NCBI GenBank assembly: GCA_035546535.1
Contig: DASZWQ010000138.1
Location: forward strand, 1-64,000
Direction: 5' to 3'
DNA length: 64,000 bases
Source: Pirellulales bacterium
Lineage (GTDB): Bacteria > Planctomycetota > Planctomycetia > Pirellulales > JACPPG01
In this document: piece by piece, positions 2,855 to 19,008 of the stretch
Numbering within the stretch: position 1 is the stretch's first letter
Layout: every line of letters starts with the position of its first letter
Made by a program: the position numbers and the translations under genes
The notes under the pieces: generated by a model
Seen by the model: only the letters and a program-made list of their open reading frames with translations
What the model was told of the DNA's origin: nothing
Database searches by the model: none

Positions 2855-4864
2855 TCACGCGCGGCGGGGGGCAGCTTCTTGCAGATCGTAACGCTGAATC
2901 TTGCGATCGAGGGTCGAGCGTTCGATCCCCAGCATGCTGGCGGTCTGGCTTTTGTTCCAATTCGTCGCCCGCAACGTGGCCAGGATATGCCGCCGCTCGA
3001 CGTCGGCCAGCGAGCAGGGGACGAATTCGGCCGGCACGCTGGGCACGTCCGTCGTATCGCCGGTGGTGGGCAATTTCGACAGCATGAGATCCTGCTGGTC
3101 GATGTATTCGCCTTCGGCCAGCACGATAGCGCGCTCGATGACGTTTTTCATTTCGCGCACGTTGCCCGGCCAGCGATAGCGCTGCATCTGGTCCATGGCC
3201 CGCTGCGTGTAACCGCGCAGCTTGCGCCCGGTCTCGCCGATAAAGCGCTGAAAGAAGTAATCGGCCAGAAGCGGAATATCCTCGGGCCGCTTGCGCAGCG
3301 CCGGCACCACGATCTCGAGCACGTGCAGGCGGAAATAGAGATCGCGGCGGAAGCGTCCCTCGGTGACGTCCTTCTCCAGGTCGCGGTTCGTGGCGGCGAT
3401 CACGCGCACGTCGACCTTCAACGACTCGCTGCCGCCGACGCGCTCGAACGGGTGCCCTTCCAGCACGCGCAGCAGCTTGGCCTGGATCGTGGGGCTCATC
3501 TCGCCGATTTCGTCGAGCATCAGCGTCCCTTTGTGCGACGCTTCGAACTTGCCGATCTTCTTCTCGACCGCGCCGGTAAAGGCGCCGCGCTCGTGGCCGA
3601 ACAACTCGCTTTCCAAAATGCTCTCGGCCAAAGCCGCGCAGTTGACGCACACGAACGGGCCCTTGCGCCGCGGGCTGGAGAAGTGTACGGCCCGCGCCAC
3701 CAGTTCCTTGCCCACGCCGCTTTCGCCGCGGATCAGCACCGTGGCGTTCGACGGGGCGGCGCGGGCGATCTCTTCGATAATGCGCGTGATCGCGGGGCTG
3801 GTGCCCACGATTTCGCTCTGGGCGCCCAGCCGCTCGCGCAGTTGCGTGTTCTCGTCGCGCGCCTGGTTCAGGTTTTCGGCTAGCTCCTGCCGGCGATGCA
3901 GATTTTGCAAGGCCACGGCCACGGTGTCGGCCACGGCCAGCGTGAACTCCAGATCGTCGGGATCGGGATTGCGCGACGGATTGGTCGAGTACAGATGAAT
4001 CAGCCCGAAGATCGTCCGGCCGCGGCGGATCGGCGCGCAGATGACGCTGGTGGCGTGAATCTCGCCCTTGCTGTCGCGACTGCTCACGGAGCTGTCGCCC
4101 ATGATGTTGCGCGCGAGCACCGCTTCGCCCTCGCGCAGTACAGTCGCGGCCAAGAACGACGACACGCGGTAGTAGGGCAACTCGGTGTCGGTGCGCGAGG
4201 CGATCACCTCGAGCGATTCGGCCGTCGGGCCGGCGCCGCGCTTCAAGAGCAAGAGTGCCCCGGCGTCGACTTGCGTTCCTTCGAACAGTCCGGCGATCGC
4301 CAGCTTGGCCATGGCTACGGCGTCGGGACTTTTTGCCAGTTCAAAGGCCAGTCGGCAGAGCTTGGCGGCCGCGCGGCCGACTTTCGAGACGCTGTTATCG
4401 TCTTCGTCGCGCGGCTCGAGGAATTTCGTCTGGCCGCGGCGATGGGTGATCGTAGTCGGCTCGTGCCCGTCGATGACGTTCACGTCTTGATGAGTTTCCA
4501 GCGCCGCATCCTCGGGCGCTATAGGCGTAGGTCGGGAGGCGCTGCCGCTATCGGGAAACGCCTTGGACAGGTCATCGACAAAGGCCAATTGCGAGCGGCC
4601 AATGTGGATGATGTCGCCCGGCGTCAGCGGATGGTCGCCGCGCACCAGCCCGTCGCCGACGATCGTGCCGTTGCGGCTGTCCAGGTCGCGGAGGGTCCAG
4701 CGTCCTTCAGACTGGAACAACTCGGCGTGGCAGCGGCTGCAGCGCTCGTCCTTGATGACGATCTGGTTCGTGGGGGCTCGTCCCACGGTCACTGTCTGCC
4801 CTGGGACGAGTCGAAAGACGTCCGTCCACTTCGAGCCTTCCCGAATCACCAGATATGCCAGCAT
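2855..4864 (-). CDS. FHA-GAF-AAA+ sigma54-dependent activator
   Basis: A 669-residue transcription activator. An FHA phosphothreonine-binding domain covers about residues 1-100, with GRAP and RNGT loops. A GAF-like sensor spans about 170-320, and the sigma54 AAA+ domain about 355-590. Walker A GESGVGKE is at 380-387, and the sigma54-contacting GAFTGA loop at 427-432 is intact. A Fis-type helix-turn-helix closes the protein (about 625-662). Such proteins remodel RNA polymerase-sigma54; the FHA head suggests input from a Ser/Thr kinase rather than a two-component partner. It is first in a run with the FGE-fold and membrane-protein genes. The assignment is firm; its target genes are unknown. Confidence 0.95.
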
Positions 4865-6688: not shown

Positions 6689-8104
6689 TTATTGGTCGAC
6701 GCGTCGATAGGCGCCCCAGTTTTGCCGGGCGAGTGTCGCCAGGAACTGCTCGAAACCCCCGCCTTGTGGGCCGATGCCGATCGTGTAAATCGACATTCGT
6801 TTCAGACGGTTGCCGCGGGTGATCAGCGCCACGATGTCGGCCGGATTATTGATGTTGCCTCCTTGAGGCACACCGTCAGTCAAGAAAAAAATCGCCTCGG
6901 CGTCGAATTGCAGGCCGGCCTCCAGCGCATCGTACGAGGCCGTGTTGGTGCCCGTCTCGAGCGTGGCGACCCAGTGCGCGGCGGTTTCCTTGACGGCGGC
7001 ATTGGCCGGCATCAACTGCTTCCGCCAGGCATAGACCTCGCCGTTAAAGGCCAGCACGCTGAACTGCGCGTCTTCGGTGAGTCCATCGATGGCTTGCAAA
7101 AGCTCTCGCTTGGCGGCGTTCAGACGTCCGCCCTGCACCATGCTCCCCGAGGTGTCGATGATGAAGACCATTTTTTGGGCATGGATCGACAGTCCGTAGA
7201 ACTTCGACTCGCGCCCCAGTCGGCTCATCGAGACGCTGGTTCCGTCCTTGCGCGGGGCGCCGGCCATCTGGAATTCTTTCTTGTTGGCCTTCCACCACTC
7301 GCGCCACGCCGCGACCTCCAGGCCAAAATCCTCGCCCGTCACCGCGATCAGGTGCTTGACGATTTCGGCGCGAATTTCTCCCTGCACTCTTTCCATGAGG
7401 GTCACGAGCTCGCCGACCGCTTCGGGCGCGCCGATTTTCATGAGTGCCTCGGCGATCGCCCGACGCAGGCCGAATTCGGCGGCGAAAACCCGCAATTTCG
7501 TGAGCTTGGCGAGCGGGCTGACATCTTCGACCTGGCCATGTTCGCCGAGTTCGTCGGCGAACGTCTGCACGAAAAGCAGGCCCTCGTGCGAGCTGGTCTG
7601 CTTCTCCAGATAGGTGCCGACCTCGCGCTCGACGTCCGGTGACTTCGAAGCCAACAAGACGGCCAACAACTGAAACGTCGTCGGGTTCACGTCGGCGCGC
7701 CGCCCGTCCTTCTTCACCACCTGAAGCAGGTAGCGGGCAATATCGAGATCGTCGTTGAAGTCGAGAAGCTGATGATAGGCGGCATCGCGGACCGAGGGCT
7801 CGTCGTCCTGGAGTCCGACGGTGACCAGCAGCCTGGCCGCCTCGACGCCGCGATAAACGTTCAACTGGCGCACCGCCGCGATCCGCTCAGGAACTTGCTT
7901 GCTGCGCAGTCGGCCCTGGATTTCGCGCTTGGCGGCGCGGAATTCATCCTTCGCCGCGTCCTCGGCCGTTTTCGTAACCGCCTTGGCGACGGCGACCTTC
8001 TTGCCCGTTCGGGCCTGGTCGTCCGCGCGGACGAAGCCTGTCGTGTCGGCTGCCAGGGTCAGCAGCGTGAGTGCCACGAGAGCGGCTGGTATCCGCACAG
8101 ACAT
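6689..8104 (-). CDS. Exported HEAT-repeat and von Willebrand A domain protein
   Basis: A 471-residue protein from the chosen ATG. An upstream in-frame ATG at 8137 would add 11 residues, but the inner one has AAAGG five bases before it and opens directly into a signal peptide. A helical region of HEAT/armadillo-like repeats (about residues 50-260) precedes a vWA domain. Its MIDAS residues are visible: DTSGS at 317-321, a threonine in ETGTNTASYD near 385 and DGVPQGG near 410. vWA-MIDAS domains bind protein ligands through a metal. This is a periplasmic or surface architecture common in planctomycetes. Partner and role are unknown. Confidence 0.8.
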   Translation of the reverse strand: MSVRIPAALVALTLLTLAADTTGFVRADDQARTGKKVAVAKAVTKTAEDAAKDEFRAAKREIQGRLRSKQVPERIAAVRQLNVYRGVEAARLLVTVGLQDDEPSVRDAAYHQLLDFNDDLDIARYLLQVVKKDGRRADVNPTTFQLLAVLLASKSPDVEREVGTYLEKQTSSHEGLLFVQTFADELGEHGQVEDVSPLAKLTKLRVFAAEFGLRRAIAEALMKIGAPEAVGELVTLMERVQGEIRAEIVKHLIAVTGEDFGLEVAAWREWWKANKKEFQMAGAPRKDGTSVSMSRLGRESKFYGLSIHAQKMVFIIDTSGSMVQGGRLNAAKRELLQAIDGLTEDAQFSVLAFNGEVYAWRKQLMPANAAVKETAAHWVATLETGTNTASYDALEAGLQFDAEAIFFLTDGVPQGGNINNPADIVALITRGNRLKRMSIYTIGIGPQGGGFEQFLATLARQNWGAYRRVDQ

Positions 8105-8519
8105 CAAAGCCTTTCGCCGCGTCGAGATGCGCCACACTTTCGCGTTCGTCTCCCGCTAACCGCGAAGAGCCGAAATCTGCCGTCCATTCTCAGCACGGCT
8201 GGGTACGGGGTCAACGCTGCTGTTGGGGGTACGGGCGAAGGCATTCTCGCCGGCTGGCTAGCGGCGAATTACCACCTGGGGGAACGTTGCCAATGGCCTG
8301 TGGAGCGTAAAAAACCCCTTGCAGCCATCTGTAGTTTGTTACCCGAGATATGGCATTCCTCGGGGGTTGTAAGTACGCTCGGTATTAGGGATTTCGTGCC
8401 CGCCCCGGGAACATGCACGGCATGGCCGGCCGCGGTCTGTACCCGCCCCGGAATCCAGGCAGCGCAAAGGCCGCAGCGAACGTTCAGAGAAGACCCCAAG
8501 TTACGAGAGGAAAGTAATC
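8105..8519. other. Gene-free divergent intergenic region
   Basis: About 415 bases between two divergent genes (VWA, minus; DUF1598-like, plus). No credible coding frame is present. Promoters for both genes are expected here. An AGAGGAAAG Shine-Dalgarno-like stretch precedes the ATG at 8520. No clear repeat or riboswitch-like fold is visible. Confidence 0.4.
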
Positions 8520-9947
8520 ATGCGCCGGACGTCAATGCCAGCTCTCGGAAATGTCGCGCGGGCTTGCGTGCCGATCGTCGTTTGTGCCGTTCTGTTCTGG
8601 GCCAGTGCGAGCCGCGCTCAGCAAGGTCTGGTCACCGGCTTCGGCGGTTTCGTCGGCGCGGTCGGCGGTGTATCGATCGATACCAATGGCGTCTTGGCCA
8701 ATGCCCAGCGCGACAACCTTAACAAGCTGCGCGATCTGCGGGCCAAAGCCTTGGGCGAGGTGCCGGGCGACCTGGCCGTGCCAACCGAGATGCGAAAGAT
8801 ATCTCTGCGCGGCCTGATGGGCGTGATCGAAGAGTGCCGCGTGAATAATCGTCCGCTGCCGGATGAAGTGAACTTCCTGGCCGGTCTGCAGCGGCTGCAT
8901 TACGTGTTTGTGTACCCCGAGCAGAATGACATTGTGCTGGTCGGCTTCGGCGAAGGGTGGAAGATCAGCGATTCGGGCGAAGTCGTTGGCGCGAACACAG
9001 GTCGCGCCGTGCTCCTGCTTGATGATCTTCTGGTGGCCCTGCGCTCGGCCATGCAGGCCGCGCAAGGAGGAATTAGCTGCTCGATCGATCCCACGGCCGA
9101 AGGGCTGCGCCGCTATCAAGAGGCGATGAAGTATCAGCAGACGATTGGCCCGGATCCGCAAGCCACGATCCGCGGCATCGAGCAAGAGCTGGGCCCACAG
9201 ACGATCACGCTGACCGGGGTGCCGCCGACGAGCCATTTTGCCCGCGTGCTGGTGGCGGCCGATTACCGGATGAAGCGGCTGGCGATGAATTTCGATCCGC
9301 CGCCGATCTCGGGCTTGCCCAGCTATTTGCAGATGGTGCGGCCGGGCCAGAAGGGCTCGGCCATGCCGCGCTGGTGGCTGGCCACGAATTACGAGCCGCT
9401 GTTGACCGACGCCGACGGTCTGGCCTGGGAATTGCGCGGGCCGGGCGTGAAGGCCATGACCGAAGAAGACTTTTTGCTGGAAAACGGCAACATCGTACAC
9501 TCCGGCAAGGCCAGCCCCACGGCACAGAAGTGGGCCAACAACATGACGGCCAAGTACGACGAGCTGTCGAAGCGCGATGCGATCTTCGGTCAGTTGCGCA
9601 ACTGCATGGACATGGCGATCGTCGCGGCCCTGTTGTTCAAGGAGAACTTGCCCGGCAAGGCGAATTTGGACCTGGCGCCGCTTACCGGTGAAAACGGCCT
9701 CCCGGTCGCCGCGTTTGCCGCGCCGAAGCAAGTCGACACGCAAGCCAGCTTCATCAAGAAGGGGGATAACTGGATCATCAGCGCCTCGGGCGGCGTATTG
9801 ATCCACTCCTGGGGCGAGGCCGATCGCAAGGAACAAAGCGCGAAACTCGACCCGATCCGCGCGAAGGCCGCGCGTGCTTCGTCGGGCAATGCGGCCGCCG
9901 GCGACAAGGCGACCACGGGCCAGCACGGCAGCTGGTGGTGGAACTAA
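8520..9947 (+). CDS. DUF1598-like exported planctomycete protein
   Basis: A 475-residue protein with an N-terminal signal sequence ending near ASASRAQQG (about residue 35). Recognisable stretches are GVSIDTNGVL, MRKISLRGLMGVIEECR, FVYPEQNDIVLVGFGEGW, CSIDPTAEGLRRYQ and TSHFARVLVAADYRMKRLAM. Together they match my memory of the planctomycete-restricted DUF1598 family. No catalytic motif is evident. ATG is preceded by AGAGGAAAG at good spacing. It converges with the large FtsK-like gene, with a palindrome in the 120-base gap. Function is unknown. Confidence 0.75.
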   Translation: MRRTSMPALGNVARACVPIVVCAVLFWASASRAQQGLVTGFGGFVGAVGGVSIDTNGVLANAQRDNLNKLRDLRAKALGEVPGDLAVPTEMRKISLRGLMGVIEECRVNNRPLPDEVNFLAGLQRLHYVFVYPEQNDIVLVGFGEGWKISDSGEVVGANTGRAVLLLDDLLVALRSAMQAAQGGISCSIDPTAEGLRRYQEAMKYQQTIGPDPQATIRGIEQELGPQTITLTGVPPTSHFARVLVAADYRMKRLAMNFDPPPISGLPSYLQMVRPGQKGSAMPRWWLATNYEPLLTDADGLAWELRGPGVKAMTEEDFLLENGNIVHSGKASPTAQKWANNMTAKYDELSKRDAIFGQLRNCMDMAIVAALLFKENLPGKANLDLAPLTGENGLPVAAFAAPKQVDTQASFIKKGDNWIISASGGVLIHSWGEADRKEQSAKLDPIRAKAARASSGNAAAGDKATTGQHGSWWWN

Positions 9948-10068: not shown

Positions 10069-13000
10069 TCATGGCGGCAGTGTCCGTCGGGCAAGCTGCT
10101 CGGCCGTTTTGGCCAGCCATGATTCACTCGGGGGCGCGTAAGGGCGGAATTTTTCCAGCCGGCCTTCGTCTTCGCGGTGCAACAGCGCCCGGTGCTTACC
10201 CAACAGGCTGGCGGCCGGCGTGTCCATGAGCAGGCTGGAATCGGTGGGGCTCATTTGCAAGAGCACCCGCGTATCGAATTCCTTCAGCCCTTGCCGATCG
10301 AGCATCCGCTGGAAGTTCGTCAGCGAGTCGCACCAGACGATCACGTGGACGCCCACGGCCGCCCCGTCGCGCAGAATGTCGGCGAACTGCTGATCCGGCC
10401 GGCGCGGCGTTTCTTCACTGCTCCGCGAGAAGCTGAATTCCTCCTCCTGCCGGCGCAGCTCGCGAAGCCGCGGCAGGTCGAAGACGAAGAGAAATCTCGG
10501 GCTCTCGTCGCCCGCCGAGGTGTGGCGGCGCTCGATCTCGGCTGCCAATTCCGCCATTACGCTGGCGGTATCGTTCGGCGAGGCCAGTCGCACCCGGCCC
10601 GGCAGCAATCGCGATAACTGGACCAGGCGCGGCATATAGTCGCGGTCCGCCAACCCGCCGTTGAGAATCGTGACCGTCGGCCCCGACTCACCATTGCCAT
10701 TGGCAGGCAACTGGGCGGCAGTCACCTGGGCGGCAGGCACCTGGGCGGCCAGGCTGAGCACGGAGCTGATCAACATGCCGGCTGCTGCTTCGTCGTTCTG
10801 ACCCAGCAAGAGTAGGTTCGAGCCACCACGGCGCGTGAACGTCGTGCTCGTCGCTTCTTGAATCGCCAAGGGCTCGCCGAGCCAGACACGCGGCGCGGAT
10901 GTCGCACTGATGGGCAAGCCGTCGGGGACGCCCGCGGAAGCACTGGTGGGCAAGCCACCAGTGGCACCAGACACCTTCGGAGGGTGGGCGGCAGCAAAGA
11001 GCGCGGCCAGCGTGTCGCTTTGCTCGACGTCGGCCGGGCGGGTTCCCTCGAAAACGATCTGATGCCGCCGCGCGCTCGCGGGGCGCTGCGCGTTGAGCCG
11101 CGTGATCTCGTCGAGGAACACGTCGCGGCGCTCGTCCGGCAGCCAGACGACCTGAAACGGGTGATTTCCTTCCACCAGCCCGTTGGCGTCGTTGTAGATC
11201 GCTTCGCCGGGGCGCGAAAGGAGCCGGGCGGCCGAGTTTTCTTCGCTGAGGATCAAATGTGCGTCGGCTTCGCTGCACTGCAACGCAATCCGCACGGCCA
11301 TTTGACCGAGCGTCGTACGGGCCAGCGAATAAGCCCCGCCCAGCGTTTGCGACCCCAGGTGTACGTGAATGCCAAAAGCACGGCCCTGCCGCACCAGGCG
11401 GTCCAAGAGCAGCGACGCCTCTTGCGCCACCTTGTCGTCTTCGACGAAGAACTCCTGGAATTCGTCGACGATGAACAGGATGCGCGGCAGGCTTTCGCCG
11501 GCGTCGCGGAAGCCTGCGATATCCTGCACGCCGGCCTGTCGAAACCGCTCGCCGCGTTGTTTCATTTCGGCGTCGAGCCTTTGCATCACGCTGAGGCCGA
11601 ACTCCCGCTCGCTCTCGATAGCGATCACGCGGGCGTGCGGCAGCGCGTGCGTGACGTAGGTTTTGAACTCGACCCCTTTCTTGAAATCGATCAGATACAG
11701 CTCAATTTCGTCAGGGCTGTAACGCAGCGCGGCGTTCGTGATCAGGGCGTGCAACAGCGTCGACTTGCCCGAACCGGTTTTGCCGGCGATGAGCACGTGC
11801 TGCGAAGTCCCTTGCCCGAGCCGCAGATGTTGCAGGCGCGTGGCGCCGGCCCGGCCCAAGGGAACGTCGATGCCGCGGCGGCTGTCCGATTTCCAGTACG
11901 CATCGTCCGCCGGCGCGATGGCTTCGAACGGCACTTCCACGCGCTTGGCCGTGTGCGCGGCGGCGCCGACGGTGTTCAGCACGCGCTTGCATTCTTCGGT
12001 GGGCGGGTTTTCGACGGTCAGGGGTAAGTCCTTGAAAGCCGGCTCCTGCCACGACAGCTCGCCGCCCGAGATGTTGAACACGGTGGCGTGCTTTTGCAGG
12101 TCGGCCAGGCTGATGCCCGGCAGCGGCGGCTGCTTGGAATCGACACTGATCAAGACCTGCACGCCGCAGCGCGGGCCGCTGGAGGCGATGCTCAACAGGC
12201 GGCGGGCCGCGGCCTCGGTGAAGCCGGCCGGAAAGTTGGCCACGACCAGCACGCGAAACGCCTCGGCCACTTCGCCCGCGGCTTCGTTGTAGGCCTCGAT
12301 CGTGGGAAATTCGTTGCGCAGATATTTCTGGATGACCGTCTCGATATGCTCGGTCAAGTCGGCCAGCCGCTGCTCGATCTGCACCGGCTCGGTCCAGATG
12401 CGATGGCTGACAAGCGCCTCGTCGTGATCGGCCAGGTGCATGAAGGAAGCAAAATTCTGGCCCAGCCCGACCGGGTCGACGATCGTCAATCGCACTTTGC
12501 CTGGCGGCACCGCGGTGAGCAATCGCAACAACACCAGTTGAAACAGCCCGATCGCGAGTTGGCGCCCCTCGCCGTGCGTCTTGATGAAAATCGACGAACC
12601 GCCGGGAAAATCCAATAGCGCCGGCAGCCGAAACCGCAAGTCGCGTCCGTCCGCATCCGGCGATTGCGCGCGCGAACGCAGATCCAGGTCGAGCTCGCCA
12701 AAACGGATCGCCTTCGGAACGTTATGCGGCGGATGCCACGCGCCGGAGGTGACGAAGCTCCAATCGGGACAGGTTTCGTCGATTTCCTGGTTGATCGCGG
12801 CCAACTCAGCCTGTACGGCCGCGTAGCCAGTCTGCCAGGCAAGCGCGGCGGCGGTGCGGGCCCGTTCGTACTCGGCCTGGTTCGCAGCTAGCTGCCGCTC
12901 CTTGGTGGCTTGTGCCGCGGTGAGCGCCTGTTCGTAGCGCTGACGGGCGTCGGCCTTGAGCTGCGCTTCGATCTCTTGCGATTTGGCAAGCGCTTCGTCG

Positions 13001-14145
13001 AGCTTGCGTTGCAGGACCACCAACTGTTGATCCGCGTCGGCCGTGAGCTTGGGCAGATCGCTTTCGCGCCGCTTGCGGCAGGCCACGAGCATCGGCGTGT
13101 GCTCTTCGGCGGCGCGGGCGTATTCCGCGTCGCGCTGGCGGCGAATCTCACTGCGTTTACGCTTGTAGGCCTTGGCCGACTTGTCGAGGTACCGCCGGGC
13201 TGACGTCTCGGCCTGCCGCACCGCCGCCAACAGTGGGCGGAAGCGCGCCGCGGCTTGCCGGCGAGCCAGCCCGCGCAGCCAGATCGTCAGTCCGACGCCC
13301 AAACCCGCCGCGAACAGCGCGGTGGCCGCCACGGTCGCTGTCAGATTTCCGCCCGTCAACCAGGCGACGAGTGGCGCCACGAGCGCGGCCGTCGCCAAAA
13401 AGACCCAGGCCGCATTCGCGCCGCGCACGGCGTCCGGCAGACGCAGCGCACGCAACGCCTGCAACTCGGTCTTGGCGATCTCGAGGGCCTGATTCAATCG
13501 CTCGCCATGATCACCGTTCTCGTCGTCGTCCGGCGGCGCAACTACGGTCTGATCGACGATCGCGCGATGGCCCCAGCGTTCCAATTCCGCGATGCAATCA
13601 CTCTCGATCGCCCGAGCGGTGCGCAGCCGGCTGCGCAGCTGCTGCTGCAATTCGGCCATGTGCTCGGACATGCGCTTGCGCGCCGCCTCGAACACGGTGC
13701 GCGCCAGCCAGCGCGCTTCGTCGACCGCCTTGTGGGCCGTGCGCTCGGCGCGGTTGATCTCATTGACCAGGCGCTGCACGGCATCCTGGGTGGCGTCCTC
13801 GATCTGCCGCGATTGAGCCTTCCATTGGGCGACATGGCCTTCGCGTTTGGCGCGTTCGCCTCTTTCCGCCGAGCCGGCTTCGCTGTGGAATTGCGCCGTG
13901 ATATCAGCCGCTGCCCGCTGAAAGTCGGAGCTGACGCGCGATTCTCCCTGGCGGAAAGCCTCGTCGGCGGCGCGCTGCGCTTCGAGGCGCTGGTCCACCA
14001 GCGCCACCAGCTGCTCCAGAACGTGCTTTTCACGCTCGACAACGCGCATCAGGCTGCAACGGGTGAAAGGAAACGTGTGGTGGTTGAGGAATTTTGGAAG
14101 GACACGCTCGAAATCGCCGCGACCTTGCCGCGGCCGGCTCGGCAT
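10069..14145 (-). CDS. FtsK/SpoIIIE-type membrane ATPase, type VII secretion-like
   Basis: A 1358-residue ATPase. The N-terminal ~240 residues are charged and coiled-coil-like. Two hydrophobic segments follow at about 248-265 and 270-292, then a second coiled-coil-rich region to about 470. Three ATPase-like modules come next: a degenerate one near 500-600, a canonical one with Walker A GKTGSGKST at 788-796 and Walker B ending in DE at 894-895, and a degenerate C-terminal one (LLLLGQNDEAAAG near 1115). Three tandem modules after a membrane anchor recall EccC/EssC, the type VII secretion motor, rather than the DNA pump FtsK. ATG at 14145 follows AGGAG; a GTG at 14184 would overlap the preceding gene. 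It is last in an operon with a WXG100-like gene. Confidence 0.88.
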   Translation of the reverse strand: MPSRPRQGRGDFERVLPKFLNHHTFPFTRCSLMRVVEREKHVLEQLVALVDQRLEAQRAADEAFRQGESRVSSDFQRAAADITAQFHSEAGSAERGERAKREGHVAQWKAQSRQIEDATQDAVQRLVNEINRAERTAHKAVDEARWLARTVFEAARKRMSEHMAELQQQLRSRLRTARAIESDCIAELERWGHRAIVDQTVVAPPDDDENGDHGERLNQALEIAKTELQALRALRLPDAVRGANAAWVFLATAALVAPLVAWLTGGNLTATVAATALFAAGLGVGLTIWLRGLARRQAAARFRPLLAAVRQAETSARRYLDKSAKAYKRKRSEIRRQRDAEYARAAEEHTPMLVACRKRRESDLPKLTADADQQLVVLQRKLDEALAKSQEIEAQLKADARQRYEQALTAAQATKERQLAANQAEYERARTAAALAWQTGYAAVQAELAAINQEIDETCPDWSFVTSGAWHPPHNVPKAIRFGELDLDLRSRAQSPDADGRDLRFRLPALLDFPGGSSIFIKTHGEGRQLAIGLFQLVLLRLLTAVPPGKVRLTIVDPVGLGQNFASFMHLADHDEALVSHRIWTEPVQIEQRLADLTEHIETVIQKYLRNEFPTIEAYNEAAGEVAEAFRVLVVANFPAGFTEAAARRLLSIASSGPRCGVQVLISVDSKQPPLPGISLADLQKHATVFNISGGELSWQEPAFKDLPLTVENPPTEECKRVLNTVGAAAHTAKRVEVPFEAIAPADDAYWKSDSRRGIDVPLGRAGATRLQHLRLGQGTSQHVLIAGKTGSGKSTLLHALITNAALRYSPDEIELYLIDFKKGVEFKTYVTHALPHARVIAIESEREFGLSVMQRLDAEMKQRGERFRQAGVQDIAGFRDAGESLPRILFIVDEFQEFFVEDDKVAQEASLLLDRLVRQGRAFGIHVHLGSQTLGGAYSLARTTLGQMAVRIALQCSEADAHLILSEENSAARLLSRPGEAIYNDANGLVEGNHPFQVVWLPDERRDVFLDEITRLNAQRPASARRHQIVFEGTRPADVEQSDTLAALFAAAHPPKVSGATGGLPTSASAGVPDGLPISATSAPRVWLGEPLAIQEATSTTFTRRGGSNLLLLGQNDEAAAGMLISSVLSLAAQVPAAQVTAAQLPANGNGESGPTVTILNGGLADRDYMPRLVQLSRLLPGRVRLASPNDTASVMAELAAEIERRHTSAGDESPRFLFVFDLPRLRELRRQEEEFSFSRSSEETPRRPDQQFADILRDGAAVGVHVIVWCDSLTNFQRMLDRQGLKEFDTRVLLQMSPTDSSLLMDTPAASLLGKHRALLHREDEGRLEKFRPYAPPSESWLAKTAEQLARRTLPP

Positions 14146-14161
14146 CGCTCCTGGACGTCGC

Positions 14162-14374
14162 TTATTTGCACTCGTGGTCGACACGCGTCAGCAACTCGGC
14201 CAAACGCTCGATCGCGCGGACCGCGCTAACCAACTTAGGCTCAAAGGGCTCCAGATGCCGGCGCTCGAAGTCGCGCATCACCTGGTCGTTCCACTGCGTC
14301 TGCGTCTGTTCCCAACGCAGCCGCAGCGTGCGCGACGCGTGCAATAGCCGGGCTTTGTTGTCATCGAATATCAA
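14162..14374 (-). CDS. Small helical protein of the FtsK/WXG100 module
   Basis: A 70-residue, charged, almost wholly helical protein with no signal or membrane segment. It starts with TTG inside TTGA, sharing bases with the TGA stop of the preceding 222-residue gene, so translation is probably coupled; GAGGGAAGAG lies just upstream. It ends 16 bases before the ATPase ATG. I recognise no family. Size and position suggest an adaptor or chaperone for the secretion-like ATPase; that is inference. Confidence 0.6.
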   Translation of the reverse strand: MIFDDNKARLLHASRTLRLRWEQTQTQWNDQVMRDFERRHLEPFEPKLVSAVRAIERLAELLTRVDHECK

Positions 14375-15039
14375 GGGTGCTCTTCCCTCTCAATATTGCC
14401 TGATGCGTCGATGGATTCCGCCGCCGGAGCGGCGCGATTTTCGTTCGATTCTTCCGCAGGCGGTGACACGGACGATGTCGACGGCCCCGGTGAGCGCGAT
14501 TCTGCCGGCGGACTCATTGGCTCCGGTGGCGCTTCGAGCACGCTGCCCGAAGGGGGCGCGATGCTCAGATACTCCTCGAGCCGTCGCACCGACGCGTCGA
14601 GAAAGCCCATCGCCACCGGAGTATCGCCCGACAGGGCACTGTCGAGCGGCTGGACTTTCATGCGGTATTCCACCACGGCCTGGCGGACGACGGGAATCCA
14701 GCGCCGCACGACGGCCAGCTTGTCCTCGGCCTCGCGCAAGCGCTTCTTGGCGGCATCGAGAACTTTCTTTTCTTGATAACAACTGGGGGTGCGGTGCGGG
14801 TCGATCGTGGCCGACAGGCAGCGGTGCAGGTCGGCCTTGGCATCGGCCACGTGTTGTTCGCGATTGCGAATCTCGGCCCGCCAGAACTTCATCATGTCGA
14901 TCTCGAGCCATTCGACAAAATCCTGGATCTCGGCTTGAATCGACGCCAGCGCCTGTTCGGCCTCATTCTGAAACAGAGAAAGCGCCGCGCGAAACGCCGC
15001 CAGCGCCTCGATCGATTTGACGTGTGCGCCCGGGCGCAT
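14371..15039 (-). CDS. Coiled-coil protein with Pro/Ser-rich tail, FtsK/WXG100 module
   Basis: A 222-residue soluble protein. Residues 1-140 are strongly helical and charged (QNEAEQALASIQAEIQDF, AAKKRLREAEDKL) and look like paired long helices. Residues 165-222 form a Pro/Ser/Glu-rich low-complexity tail. There is no signal peptide and no WXG at the turn. It starts 7 bases after the WXG100-like gene and shares its stop with the next start, so it belongs to that operon. A secreted partner, a scaffold or a cytosolic adaptor are all possible; no family recognised. Confidence 0.65.
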   Translation of the reverse strand: MRPGAHVKSIEALAAFRAALSLFQNEAEQALASIQAEIQDFVEWLEIDMMKFWRAEIRNREQHVADAKADLHRCLSATIDPHRTPSCYQEKKVLDAAKKRLREAEDKLAVVRRWIPVVRQAVVEYRMKVQPLDSALSGDTPVAMGFLDASVRRLEEYLSIAPPSGSVLEAPPEPMSPPAESRSPGPSTSSVSPPAEESNENRAAPAAESIDASGNIEREEHP

Positions 15040-15046
15040 AAGCGAC

Positions 15047-15319
15047 TCAACGTTGCCGCAGGTATTCTTCCGCGCGATCCGCCTTGCGCAACAAGAACGG
15101 CACGTGGGCGTCGGCCGCCTCGATGAACTTCGACAGGGCCAGCATGGTCTGCTCGAACTCCTCGTTGAACTTCTGCTGTTCCTTGTCGCGCCAGGTCTGG
15201 CCGAGATTCTTCAACTGCCCGTGCAGTGTCATCAACTGGTTCTGCAGGTCGCTGTTGAACCGTTTCAGATTGTGGGCAAAACGACGCAACTGCTCGGGAT
15301 CGACGATGGCTTGCGACAT
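15047..15319 (-). CDS. WXG100/ESAT-6-like protein
   Basis: A 90-residue all-helical protein with no signal peptide. Trp is at residue 43 in the turn between two long helices, exactly where ESAT-6/EsxA proteins carry WXG. Here the turn reads W43-R-D rather than W-x-G. A helix of hydrophobic heptads (FNSDLQNQLMTLHGQL) precedes it and another (EEFEQTMLALSKFIEAAD) follows. No clear C-terminal YxxxD/E signal is present. WXG100 proteins are small secreted helical hairpins exported by type VII systems. It is first in an operon with an EssC-like ATPase, which strongly supports the assignment. The ATG at 15319 gives the family's usual length. Confidence 0.78.
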   Translation of the reverse strand: MSQAIVDPEQLRRFAHNLKRFNSDLQNQLMTLHGQLKNLGQTWRDKEQQKFNEEFEQTMLALSKFIEAADAHVPFLLRKADRAEEYLRQR

Positions 15320-15611: not shown

Positions 15612-16061
15612 ATGCGCATCGGAATCGCGTCGGATCATGGCGGCTTCGAGCTGAAACAATTGCTTGCCGACTCGCTGCGCAAAAGCGGATTTGACCTTGT
15701 TGATTTTGGCGCCGAGGTCTTGAACACCGCCGATGATTATCCCGATTACGTGATCCCGCTGGCCAAAGCGGTCGCTGCCGGCGACATCGAGCGCGGTATC
15801 GCCGTATGCGGTAGCGGTGTGGGCGCTTCGATCGCCGCCAACAAAGTACACGGCGCCCGCGCGGCTTTGGTTCACGACGGGTTCTCAGCCCACCAAGGGG
15901 TCGAAGACGACAACATGAACATCCTCTGCCTGGGCGGCCGGGTCATCGGGCCGCTTCTGGCGGAGGAATTCGTGCGCACGTTCCTGGCGGCGAAGTTTTC
16001 CGGCGCCGAAAGGCACCAGCGGCGCTTGGGTAAAGTGGCGGCGCTCGAGCGTGTCGACTGA
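15612..16061 (+). CDS. rpiB: Ribose-5-phosphate isomerase B
   Basis: A 149-residue RpiB/LacAB isomerase interconverting ribose 5-phosphate and ribulose 5-phosphate in the pentose phosphate pathway. ASDHGG at residues 6-11 and the catalytic cysteine C66 in AVCGSGVGASIAANK are present, as is the phosphate loop with DDNMNILCLGGR at 99-110. Length is normal. GAGGGAGCGTAAG precedes the ATG. Transcribed divergently from the WXG100-like operon, with about 290 bases between them. Confidence 0.95.
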   Translation: MRIGIASDHGGFELKQLLADSLRKSGFDLVDFGAEVLNTADDYPDYVIPLAKAVAAGDIERGIAVCGSGVGASIAANKVHGARAALVHDGFSAHQGVEDDNMNILCLGGRVIGPLLAEEFVRTFLAAKFSGAERHQRRLGKVAALERVD

Positions 16062-17108: not shown

Positions 17109-17462
17109 GTGAGAGTAAACAGGCTGGCGCTGGGTCATCCCTGGAAACTCGCCGGCCACATGCTCGTGCACGCGTCGCTCTTGATCCCGCTAGGATTGGC
17201 GACGTTGGGCGCGGGAATGGCCATCTATCACTGGGTCGAAGGCCTTGCCTGGTCCGACGCGTTTCTCAATGCGGCCATGCTCCTGGGCGGCATGGGGCCC
17301 GTCGACCCCTTACACACCCAGGCGGGCAAGTGGCTGGCCGGCCTGTACGCGATTTTTGCGGGCGTGGTGTTTCTCGTGTTGGCTGGTGTGATGCTCGCGC
17401 CCGTCTTGCATCACGTGCTGGCGCGCTTTCATCTTGACGAGACCGACGATTCTCCGAAGTGA
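17109..17462 (+). CDS. Two-helix membrane protein with potassium-channel-like layout
   Basis: A 117-residue membrane protein. A GTG start at 17109 is preceded by AAGGAGG seven bases away, much better than the ATG at 17079. TM1 spans about 20-40, a re-entrant-looking loop about 48-64 and TM2 about 72-98. The loop, SDAFLNAAMLLGGMGPVD, aligns with the pore helix plus TVGYGD filter of K+ channels. Here the filter would read GMGPVD, so canonical K+ selectivity is not expected. It may be an ion-channel relative or a structural protein. Its end overlaps the histidine-kinase gene by 34 bases tail to tail. Confidence 0.65.
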   Translation: MRVNRLALGHPWKLAGHMLVHASLLIPLGLATLGAGMAIYHWVEGLAWSDAFLNAAMLLGGMGPVDPLHTQAGKWLAGLYAIFAGVVFLVLAGVMLAPVLHHVLARFHLDETDDSPK

Positions 17463-18838
17463 CCGGGGAGTTCGACGATCATTTCCGTGCCACCCCCTGC
17501 GGCTTCGGCAACGCGAATCGTGCCGCCGTGGCCGGTGACAATGCCATAAGCGAGGCTCAGCCCGAGGCCAGTACCGCCCTGCTCATGGCGCGTGGTGTAG
17601 AAGGGATCGAAGATGCGGCCGCGCTGTTCGAGCGGTATGCCGCGACCGTTGTCTTTTACAGTAACGCGCACGCCGGCACCGACGTGTTCGCTGCGAATGC
17701 GCACGTGGGGCGAATCTTCGGCGGCCTCCACACCGTTGCAGATCAAGTTCACGAACACCTGTTCCAGTTCGACGGGATTAAGCTTCACTTTCGGCAAGGA
17801 CGGCGCCAACTCGACCTCGACGACGCCGCCACGACGGGCCACGTAGGTCTGCGTCAGCTCGATCGCGTGCTGCACGACCGAATTGATATCGTCGGGCCAC
17901 CGCGCGGCCGCGTCCTGGCGGGCGAATCGCAGGATGTTCTTGACGATGCGGCCGCAGCGCTTCGTATTGTCGACAATATCTCGCAGCAAAGACCTCAGGG
18001 CGTCATTCCGGCTGTCCGGATCGGCCATCCGCAGCGCTTGTTCGGCCGATAACAGTATCATGCCGATGGGGTTGTTGATCTCGTGCGCGATGCCGGCCGC
18101 CAAGGTGCCCACCGAGGACAGTCGTTCGGCATGGCGCAGCTGTTCGCGCGAAGCATCGAGCTGACGCGTTCGGTCTTCGACAAGTCGTTCGAGATGGTCG
18201 CGGTGTTGCTCCAATTCGGCGGCAGCCGCCAGCCAGCGCGTTTGCAGTCGCTGCCGCGTAACCTGCACTGCGGCGCCGAGTGCCGTCGCCCACACGAGCG
18301 AGAAGCCGAAGTGCAACCATTCGTCGCCGGCGGGGTTCGTAAAAGCAATCGCCAACCACCCGGCCCAAGCGACGGCGACGATGACGGCGGACCAGGCAAG
18401 CGAGAGCGATATAAGGCCCGTCCCGGCGATCAGAATGGCCACGTTCATCGTGTCGCGCGGATTCTGCGCCACGTACAACTGCCCGAAACAGCGCACAAGC
18501 GCCAATGCGGCAATCACGAGCAGCATCGGATAAACCAGATGATCTGGCACACGATACCGGCCCACCAGCCAGCGCAGACCGAAGGCGATCGCGGCCGAAG
18601 CGGTTTCTAGCGCCAACAGCCAAGGCGCCCAGACGCCGAAGCCCAATGAAACCGAACACACAGCAAGAATGACGAAAACGATGCCCATGGCCGTCGTCAG
18701 CGGCCGCAAGCTGTCGCGGACCGACGCCGTCATCGCCGCCTGCAATTGCTCACGGCTCATCGAGGACGGTGGACGGAGAGCCATGAAGGCGCTTTCGGCG
18801 GAACGATTCTTGACACGAGGCGACGAGGCGCTCGCCAT
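17429..18838 (-). CDS. Membrane sensor histidine kinase
   Basis: A 469-residue kinase from ATG 18838; in-frame ATGs at 18973 and 18784 are alternatives and none has a good ribosome site. About six hydrophobic segments (roughly residues 40-190) form a membrane sensor, then a coiled coil. The HisKA H-box GIAHEINNPIG has its phospho-acceptor His near 252. N-box FVNLICNGVEA, G1 DNGRGIP, F-box FDPFYTT and G2 GTGLGLSLAYGIV are all intact. No response regulator adjoins it, so it is an orphan kinase. It is convergent with the channel-like gene. Confidence 0.92.
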   Translation of the reverse strand: MASASSPRVKNRSAESAFMALRPPSSMSREQLQAAMTASVRDSLRPLTTAMGIVFVILAVCSVSLGFGVWAPWLLALETASAAIAFGLRWLVGRYRVPDHLVYPMLLVIAALALVRCFGQLYVAQNPRDTMNVAILIAGTGLISLSLAWSAVIVAVAWAGWLAIAFTNPAGDEWLHFGFSLVWATALGAAVQVTRQRLQTRWLAAAAELEQHRDHLERLVEDRTRQLDASREQLRHAERLSSVGTLAAGIAHEINNPIGMILLSAEQALRMADPDSRNDALRSLLRDIVDNTKRCGRIVKNILRFARQDAAARWPDDINSVVQHAIELTQTYVARRGGVVEVELAPSLPKVKLNPVELEQVFVNLICNGVEAAEDSPHVRIRSEHVGAGVRVTVKDNGRGIPLEQRGRIFDPFYTTRHEQGGTGLGLSLAYGIVTGHGGTIRVAEAAGGGTEMIVELPGHFGESSVSSR

Positions 18839-19008
18839 CGCCGGGGGCAAAAACTCGGCAACGTGCTTGGCAGGAAGGGGGCCTACGGTTGCCGACGGTT
18901 TTTTGACCCTGCGAGTGGATGATACGCAGAGCCGCCTGAAAACATACCGAACAGGTGGATTTTCCACCAGCATGTTACATCAGCACTTACGACGGGCCGG
19001 TGGTACGG

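What the first reader, a model, noticed from the sequence alone, without database searches (positions are those of the whole stretch)
10069..15319. Compact type VII-secretion-like module in a planctomycete
Four tightly spaced minus-strand genes encode a WXG100-like hairpin protein (90 aa), a 222-aa coiled-coil protein, a 70-aa helical protein and a 1358-aa membrane ATPase with three FtsK/SpoIIIE-like modules. The gaps are 7 nt, a 4-nt overlap and 16 nt. Seen in sequence: Trp43 turn, membrane helices, Walker A and B in the middle module only. Known: type VII systems pair WXG100 proteins with EccC/EssC motors. No EccB, D or E-like gene is present, and the two small helical proteins have no recognised family. 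It may be a minimal planctomycete-specific secretion or envelope machine.
Basis: partly seen in the sequence, partly recalled or inferred. Interest (0 to 1): 0.82.

Follow-up and report, generated by a model that had tools for sequence, protein, structure and literature searches.

The report
Planctomycete WXG100–EccC-like four-gene machine
Many planctomycetes, which are Gram-negative-type bacteria, carry one copy of a four-part set: a membrane motor resembling the one that drives type VII protein secretion in Gram-positive bacteria, plus three small hairpin proteins, which makes it a good candidate for an unstudied export machine.

Summary
The 90-aa protein is WXG100 (PF06013, 43 bits). The 1358-aa ATPase has two membrane helices and three FtsK-like modules, with a P-loop only in the middle one; its best sequence and fold relatives are EccC/EssC. 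The order WXG100–coiled-coil–70 aa–ATPase recurs in 50 of 63 related loci with enough upstream sequence. In 199 planctomycete genomes, the same 24 have the ATPase family and the WXG100; 23 of them have the coiled-coil protein. This holds in six genomes where the genes have scattered. The WXG100 is in 224 of 297 genomes of the class, nearly always single copy.
Corrections: the 70-aa protein is probably a second, shortened WXG100-type hairpin (W-x-D turn). The coiled-coil protein is a long two-helix hairpin with only weak WXG100 similarity. The turn is always W-x-D, never W-x-G. The YxxxD/E signal is absent in 64 of 64, and the motor appears to lack EccC's fourth NTPase domain.
It works like a type VII core but is not a filed T7SSa–j member. 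H. pylori HP0062/HP0066 is the nearest published parallel. Secretion itself is inferred. New variant of a known kind.

The parts
15047..15319 (-). WXG100 family hairpin protein, 90 aa, W43-R44-D45 turn
   Evidence: PF06013 43.2 bits; 24/24 co-occurrence with the ATPase; W-x-D in 63 of 63 relatives with a readable turn
14371..15039 (-). 222-aa long helical hairpin (helices 10-77 and 88-160) with a Pro/Ser-rich tail
   Evidence: AlphaFold2 model, helices at pLDDT about 96; conserved in the same genomes; no Pfam family
14162..14374 (-). 70-aa hairpin with a W28-x-D30 turn and invariant C69; probable shortened WXG100 relative; TTG start overlapping the preceding stop by 4 nt
   Evidence: alignment A4; hhalign 84-89% with WXG100 against controls; Pfam WXG100 is its most frequent weak hit
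10069..14145 (-). EccC/EssC-like membrane ATPase, 1358 aa
13357..13413 (-). membrane helix 1 of the ATPase (residues 245-263)
   Evidence: hydropathy, conserved in relatives
13276..13332 (-). membrane helix 2 of the ATPase (residues 272-290)
   Evidence: hydropathy, conserved in most relatives
11926..12762 (-). module 1, degenerate FtsK-like domain without P-loop
   Evidence: A5 alignment; one P-loop per protein; model
11131..11913 (-). module 2, the only module with a P-loop, closest in sequence to EccC ATPase 1
   Evidence: A8, 76% mean column identity; best solved match EccC ATPase 1
11758..11784 (-). Walker A GKTGSGKST (residues 788-796)
   Evidence: invariant K794, S795, T796
11461..11490 (-). 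Walker B LPRILFIVDE (residues 886-895)
   Evidence: invariant D894, E895
10096..10908 (-). module 3, degenerate FtsK-like domain, closest in sequence to EccC ATPase 2
   Evidence: A7; matches to EccC5 and 4nh0 ATPase 2 regions

Best explanation
It is a single-copy, mostly vertically inherited, type VII-like machine of Planctomycetota made of one motor and three helical hairpins. Shown here: the motor is an EccC/EssC-type membrane ATPase with one P-loop module; the 90-aa partner is WXG100; the 222-aa partner is predicted as a long two-helix hairpin; and the sets of genomes carrying the parts coincide. Likely but not proven: the 70-aa partner is a shortened WXG100 relative. Inferred: the hairpins pack into hetero-oligomeric four-helix bundles, like EsxA-EsxB or LXG-Lap complexes. 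That bundle docks on the motor and switches on ATP hydrolysis in the middle module. The hexameric motor then threads or pushes the bundle, and possibly cargo bound to the long hairpin, through the inner membrane. The bundle must engage the motor differently from known systems, because the C-terminal YxxxD/E signal and, by sequence correspondence, the last EccC ATPase domain are both missing.
For: WXG100: 13 of 13 members match PF06013; solved relatives are HP0062 (E 1e-12) and EsxB/EsxA. Motor: EccCa 106 bits against FtsK 17; middle domain 160 bits to EccC; three-domain fold best matched by EccC, Foldseek E 2e-32, 739 residues aligned to 4nh0. Conserved order in 50 of 63 loci and in 13 loci of a second sample. 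The same 24 of 199 genomes have ATPase and WXG100, 23 of them also the coiled-coil protein, including genomes where the genes are unlinked. 224 of 297 in the class. 70-aa protein: reciprocal HMM hits in 14 of 14; hhalign score 31.7 against a maximum of 17.2 in 60 column shuffles and 14.1 reversed. The ATPase tree broadly follows taxonomy.
Against: No secretion or physical interaction has been shown. YxxxD/E is absent in 64 of 64 WXG100 proteins. No YukC above cut-off in 24 genomes and no LXG above cut-off; YukD in only 4 of 24. No recognisable cargo: the targeting-type hairpins occur essentially once per genome. The similarity of the coiled-coil protein to WXG100 is weak (hhalign 31-46%). A single-domain structural alignment scores FtsK slightly above EccC for the middle module. 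The assignment of the three modules to EccC domains differs between the sequence evidence and the fold alignment.
Confidence: 0.6

Rival explanations
1. The hairpins are permanent cytoplasmic adaptors or regulators of a membrane FtsK-family motor that does not secrete protein but moves DNA or remodels the envelope. The WXG100 fold is used only to assemble or gate the motor.
For: No YxxxD/E signal (0 of 64), no YukC found, no recognisable cargo. The middle module is structurally as close to FtsK as to EccC. Housekeeping-like single copy.
Against: Sequence profiles favour EccC/EssC over FtsK. The tandem three-module architecture is EccC/EssC-like. The genome has a separate FtsK-type protein (G000:C128). 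Known WXG100 partners of such motors are secreted (PMC11217815).
Confidence: 0.22
2. A type VII-like weapon that delivers polymorphic toxins, with the long hairpin as the LXG-like carrier.
For: The long hairpin has LXG-like size. Six extended copies from Phycisphaerae-type genomes carry a C-terminal Imm33-like domain, and one Anaerolineae-labelled record has a different C-terminal extension without a Pfam match.
Against: One copy per genome, no expanded set of carriers, no LXG above cut-off, no toxin gene recognised beside the cluster, near-vertical inheritance. Most copies end in a short tail.
Confidence: 0.08
3. An anti-phage defence system of the Ssp or MADS type, since PADLOC links the ATPase to SspH and mad8.
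For: SspH 93 bits and mad8 76 bits.
Against: The matches cover only the FtsK-like domain. WXG100 and the other small proteins hit nothing in PADLOC. Defence genes are usually patchy, whereas this is in 224 of 297 genomes of the class and broadly tracks taxonomy.
Confidence: 0.04

Closest known systems
Type VII secretion systems T7SSa/T7SSb and T7SSc-j (Garrett et al. 2024, PMC11217815)
   Same: A WXG100 hairpin plus an FtsK-family membrane ATPase with two membrane helices and tandem NTPase modules; extra small helical partners as in EsxA-EsxB or LXG-Lap.
   Different: Three NTPase modules instead of four; a long coiled-coil N-terminus instead of FHA or nothing; W-x-D instead of W-x-G; no YxxxD/E; no consistent ubiquitin-like TsxB; no EssB/YukC found; found in Planctomycetota, a phylum not mentioned in that paper.
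Helicobacter pylori HP0062/HP0066 pair, called a minimal type VII set (PMC4978471; HP0062 review PMC3397514)
   Same: HP0062 is the closest solved relative of the WXG100 family (E 1e-12), has W-R-D in the turn, and its gene clusters with an FtsK/SpoIIIE-domain protein, in a Gram-negative.
   Different: The planctomycete set has two further conserved small helical subunits and a long coiled-coil N-terminus on the motor.
DNA translocase FtsK
   Same: Same P-loop fold; middle module structurally similar (Z 31).
   Different: FtsK has one motor domain; here there are three tandem modules, sequence scores favour EccC/EssC, and FtsK has no WXG100 partner (established knowledge).

Membership tests
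Type VII secretion system (T7SS core) | WXG100-family protein (TsxA/EsxA) | tested here: met
   PF06013 over cut-off; 13 of 13 members match at E <= 0.001
Type VII secretion system (T7SS core) | W-x-G motif at the hairpin turn | tested here: not met
   W-x-D in 63 of 63 with a readable turn
Type VII secretion system (T7SS core) | EccC/EssC-type membrane ATPase with two membrane helices ahead of the NTPase modules | tested here: met
   the helices follow about 240 residues of mostly coiled coil instead of lying at the N-terminus
Type VII secretion system (T7SS core) | four C-terminal NTPase domains in the ATPase (PMC11217815) | tested here: not met
   three modules in the model and alignment; by sequence modules 2 and 3 correspond to EccC ATPases 1 and 2; the fold alignment is ambiguous on which domain is missing
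Type VII secretion system (T7SS core) | C-terminal secretion signal YxxxD/E on a WXG100 partner | tested here: not met
   0 of 64 WXG100 proteins; a loose HxxxD/ExxhxxxH pattern in 22 of 64 was not calibrated against chance
Type VII secretion system (T7SS core) | ubiquitin-like TsxB/EsaB/YukD partner (almost universal) | tested here: not met
   PF08817 absent from the window's genome and from 20 of 24 genomes, not beside the cluster where present; the B. subtilis control rings
Type VII secretion system (T7SS core) | ATPase-dependent export of WXG100 | not testable with these tools
   needs an experiment
T7SSb | EssB/YukC membrane protein | tested here: not met
   PF10140 above cut-off in 0 of 24; the B. 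subtilis control rings
T7SSb | LXG substrates | tested here: not met
   PF04740 above cut-off in 0 of 24; the B. subtilis control rings
T7SSb | EssA and EsaA membrane proteins | not tested
T7SSa (ESX) | EccB | tested here: inconclusive
   PF05108 in 0 of 24, but no control genome rang
T7SSa (ESX) | EccD, EccE, MycP | not tested
   no dedicated genome-wide search was run
WXG100 family (for the 70-aa protein) | recognised by the WXG100 profile | tested here: inconclusive
   3 of 14 members hit PF06013 weakly, best E 0.0022; family-to-family comparison positive; EsxA in the PDB only at E 0.09
WXG100/LXG family (for the 222-aa protein) | recognised by WXG100 or LXG profiles | tested here: not met
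   the window protein matches neither in Pfam, and neither is among the 25 of 30 weak families listed for the 14 members; hhalign to WXG100 31-46%
Ssp/MADS anti-phage systems | partner proteins of the system besides the FtsK-like ATPase | tested here: not met
   the three small proteins hit nothing in PADLOC

The most novel reading that the evidence does not exclude
A class-wide, probably housekeeping export machine of Gram-negative-type bacteria: the founding example of a type VII-like subtype that uses a three-hairpin bundle with W-x-D turns, without the C-terminal signal, the last motor domain, or any known EccB/D/E or EssA/B-type partner.
Probability: 0.42. Interest if true: 0.82.

Novelty: new variant of a known kind. 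Interest (0 to 1): 0.67.

Why it matters
Type VII secretion is described in the papers found here for Gram-positive phyla (T7SSa-j), with one side remark on an H. pylori WxG/FtsK pair. A four-part set kept in single copy by about three quarters of the Planctomycetia-class genomes sampled, and lost or retained as a unit even when its genes have scattered, implies a conserved function in an envelope with two membranes. It gives a small, testable model for what the irreducible core of a WXG100-driven motor is, and for how such a motor can work without the known signal and partner proteins. It also adds two protein families without assigned function to that core.

Tried and rejected
Iterated HMMs of the three small families merged into one; this was profile drift, so I rebuilt each family from position-defined members and compared them without iteration. 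Only the 70-aa/WXG100 link survived well; the link for the 222-aa protein stays weak.
Fold search with the 222-aa model returned generic coiled coils with no hit at E <= 0.001.
'Solo' ATPases looked like a counter-example to the four-gene set, but whole-genome searches found the missing genes elsewhere in the six genomes checked.
Conserved neighbours of the dispersed genes: none recognised by eye.
A defence reading from the SspH and mad8 hits was rejected because the hits cover only the motor domain.
EccB absence could not be counted because the control was silent.
Three extra hits of the 222-aa profile in the phylum (E about 1e-4, residues 72-134 only, inside long ORFs) were judged coiled-coil noise.

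Full report
Observation. The four genes are present exactly as described. The 90-aa protein is a WXG100 family member by Pfam (PF06013, 43.2 bits, cut-off 27.3) and the only PF06013 hit in the whole 6.36-Mb genome. The ATPase, read from the ATG at 14145, has 1358 residues: a mostly coiled-coil N-terminal region of about 240 residues, two membrane helices at 245-263 and 272-290, and three FtsK-like modules. Only the middle module has a P-loop, and this is so in 21 of 21 relatives.

What the motor is. NCBIfam profiles score EccCa at 106 bits, EssC at 92, EccCb at 78 and the DNA translocase FtsK at 17. With a profile of the middle module alone, the best solved structures are EccC (160 and 130 bits) and YukB (112 bits); FtsK reaches 64 bits. 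These matches lie in the region I take as ATPase 1 of EccC. The profile of module 3 matches EccC5 and 4nh0 in what I take as ATPase 2. Module 1 has no significant sequence match. The assignment of EccC residue ranges to domains rests on my knowledge of those proteins. AlphaFold2 on residues 440-1358 gave a good model (pLDDT 85, pTM 0.80). Foldseek ranks EccC/EssC entries 1 to 8 (best E 2e-32). A structural re-alignment covers 739 residues of 4nh0 but also gives FtsK a slightly higher Z for the single middle domain. So the tandem architecture is EccC/EssC-like, one domain short of the four described for EccC/EssC (PMC11217815). Sequence suggests that the missing one is the last domain; the fold alignment, which pairs three with three in order, does not settle this.

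The set is real and co-inherited. Fetching relatives of the ATPase from unnamed planctomycete genomes showed the same order, WXG100 - coiled-coil - 70 aa - ATPase, in 13 loci counting the window. A scan of GTDB contigs with a profile of module 1 found at least 438 relatives. The best 80 are nearly all labelled Planctomycetota; one is labelled Anaerolineae and three carry only 'bacterium' in the title. Of 63 loci with at least 1.5 kb upstream, 50 have all three small genes, 4 have some and 9 have none. The 4-nt overlap between genes 2 and 3 recurs in 31 of 52 loci. In a sample of 199 planctomycete genomes, full-family ATPases occur in 24, and the WXG100 profile hits exactly those 24 and none of the others. 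By counting alone the chance is about 1e-31 by genome and 1e-23 by genus, but relatedness is not corrected for. The coiled-coil protein is in 23 of the 24. In the six Planctomycetaceae-type genomes of this sample (family f4) whose ATPase stands alone, the WXG100, coiled-coil and 70-aa genes are present elsewhere, in one case together, in others split. Three other genomes of that family lack the ATPase, WXG100 and coiled-coil protein. In the class as a whole, 224 of 297 genomes have the WXG100, nearly always one copy. The ATPase tree broadly follows taxonomy, which points to mostly vertical inheritance; the Anaerolineae-labelled record groups with one long-branched planctomycete and could be transfer or mis-binning. 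One genome, G107, has only WXG100 and ATPase.

The small proteins. The turn of the WXG100 protein is W-x-D in all 63 sequences with a readable turn, never W-x-G, and none of 64 has YxxxD/E in its C-terminal part. The 70-aa family has an invariant W28-x-D30 and, in the first alignment, C69. Built separately and compared without iteration, the 70-aa and WXG100 families hit each other in 14 of 14 members. With larger alignments hhalign scores 31.7 one way and 26.2 the other, against at most 17.2 in 60 column shuffles and 14.1 reversed. In whole-genome searches with the 70-aa profile, a weak further hit is the WXG100 gene itself in five of 16 genomes (E 0.02-0.05). Pfam WXG100 is the family that most members hit, though weakly (3 of 14, best 0.0022). 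I therefore take it as a probable shortened WXG100 relative. The 222-aa protein is predicted as two helices of 68 and 73 residues, about the size of an LXG domain. Its sequence link to WXG100 is weak (31-46%) and it has no Pfam family. Most copies end in a short tail; six of the seven extended copies scanned carry a C-terminal Imm33-like domain (PF24719).

What is missing. No YukC above cut-off in the 24 genomes, with the B. subtilis control ringing. No LXG above cut-off, same control. YukD occurs in 4 of 24, not beside the cluster and not in the window's genome. EccB was not found, but no control rang, so this does not count. EccD, EccE, EssA and EsaA were not tested. The WXG100 and 222-aa profiles each find essentially one gene per genome, so there is no sign of an expanded family of cargo carriers.

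How it most likely works. Shown: the parts, their kinship and their co-inheritance. Inferred: the hairpins form a hetero-oligomeric bundle, as EsxA-EsxB and LXG-Lap pairs do (PMC11217815). The bundle engages the hexameric motor, ATP is turned over in the middle module, and the bundle with or without cargo is moved across the inner membrane. Because both the C-terminal signal and, probably, the last motor domain are absent, engagement must differ from the EccC/EssC scheme. The absence of both is suggestive but not proof. The main rival is a non-secreting motor gated by hairpin adaptors.

Known or new. Garrett et al. 2024 describe T7SSa to T7SSj in Bacillota and Actinomycetota only, and do not mention planctomycetes. 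Poulsen et al. 2014 found WXG100 proteins almost only in those two phyla plus some Chloroflexi. The closest solved relative of our WXG100 family is H. pylori HP0062, which also has W-R-D in the turn and clusters with an FtsK/SpoIIIE-domain protein (PMC3397514). HP0062/HP0066 have been called a minimal type VII set (PMC4978471). So a WxD-hairpin plus FtsK pair in a Gram-negative is not new. The four-part planctomycete set, its phylum-wide single-copy retention and its two extra subunits were not found in the papers searched. That library lacks most subscription journals, including Sutcliffe 2011 on the distribution of WXG100 systems, which I could not read.

Verdict. The finding stands as a type VII-like core with two further conserved subunits. 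It works like a type VII core by anatomy, but fails several tested membership features (four NTPase domains, W-x-G, C-terminal signal, TsxB), so I do not file it under a named T7SS subtype.

Noticed in passing
window 2855-4864 (-): FHA-GAF-sigma-54 activator-Fis regulator about 5 kb from the ATPase. In G107 (L033:5787-6740) a sigma-54-type activator, read from its sequence, lies just upstream of the WXG100 gene; a link is untested.
   Followed up: no
window 6689-8137 (-) and 8520-9947 (+): VWA + HEAT protein (best NCBIfam hit a sortase-target VWA model, below cut-off) and a DUF1598 protein, next to the cluster in this genome.
   Followed up: no
L066, L090, L095, L101, L109, L123 (gene 2 of the cluster): Phycisphaerae-type copies of the long hairpin carry a C-terminal Imm33-like domain (PF24719).
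   Followed up: partly
L127:826-6595: Anaerolineae-labelled record with the cluster, a 3.2-kb stretch with WD40 repeats between the 70-aa gene and the ATPase, and an extra C-terminal domain without Pfam match on the long hairpin.
   Followed up: partly
L033 (G107): A genome with only WXG100 and ATPase; the other two small proteins were not found, so the two-gene form may suffice in some lineages.
   Followed up: partly
L036, L046, L047: DksA/TraR-type zinc-finger-like gene upstream of the lone ATPase in Planctomycetaceae-type genomes (read from the sequence, not scanned).
   Followed up: no
G188, G110, G141, G056 (L178-L180): YukD-like ubiquitin-fold genes over the Pfam cut-off, on other contigs than the cluster; context not examined.
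   Followed up: no
window 17429-18973 (-) and 15612-16061 (+): Ordinary neighbours: a sensor histidine kinase and an RpiB/LacAB sugar isomerase; the isomerase is divergent from the WXG100 gene.
   Followed up: no
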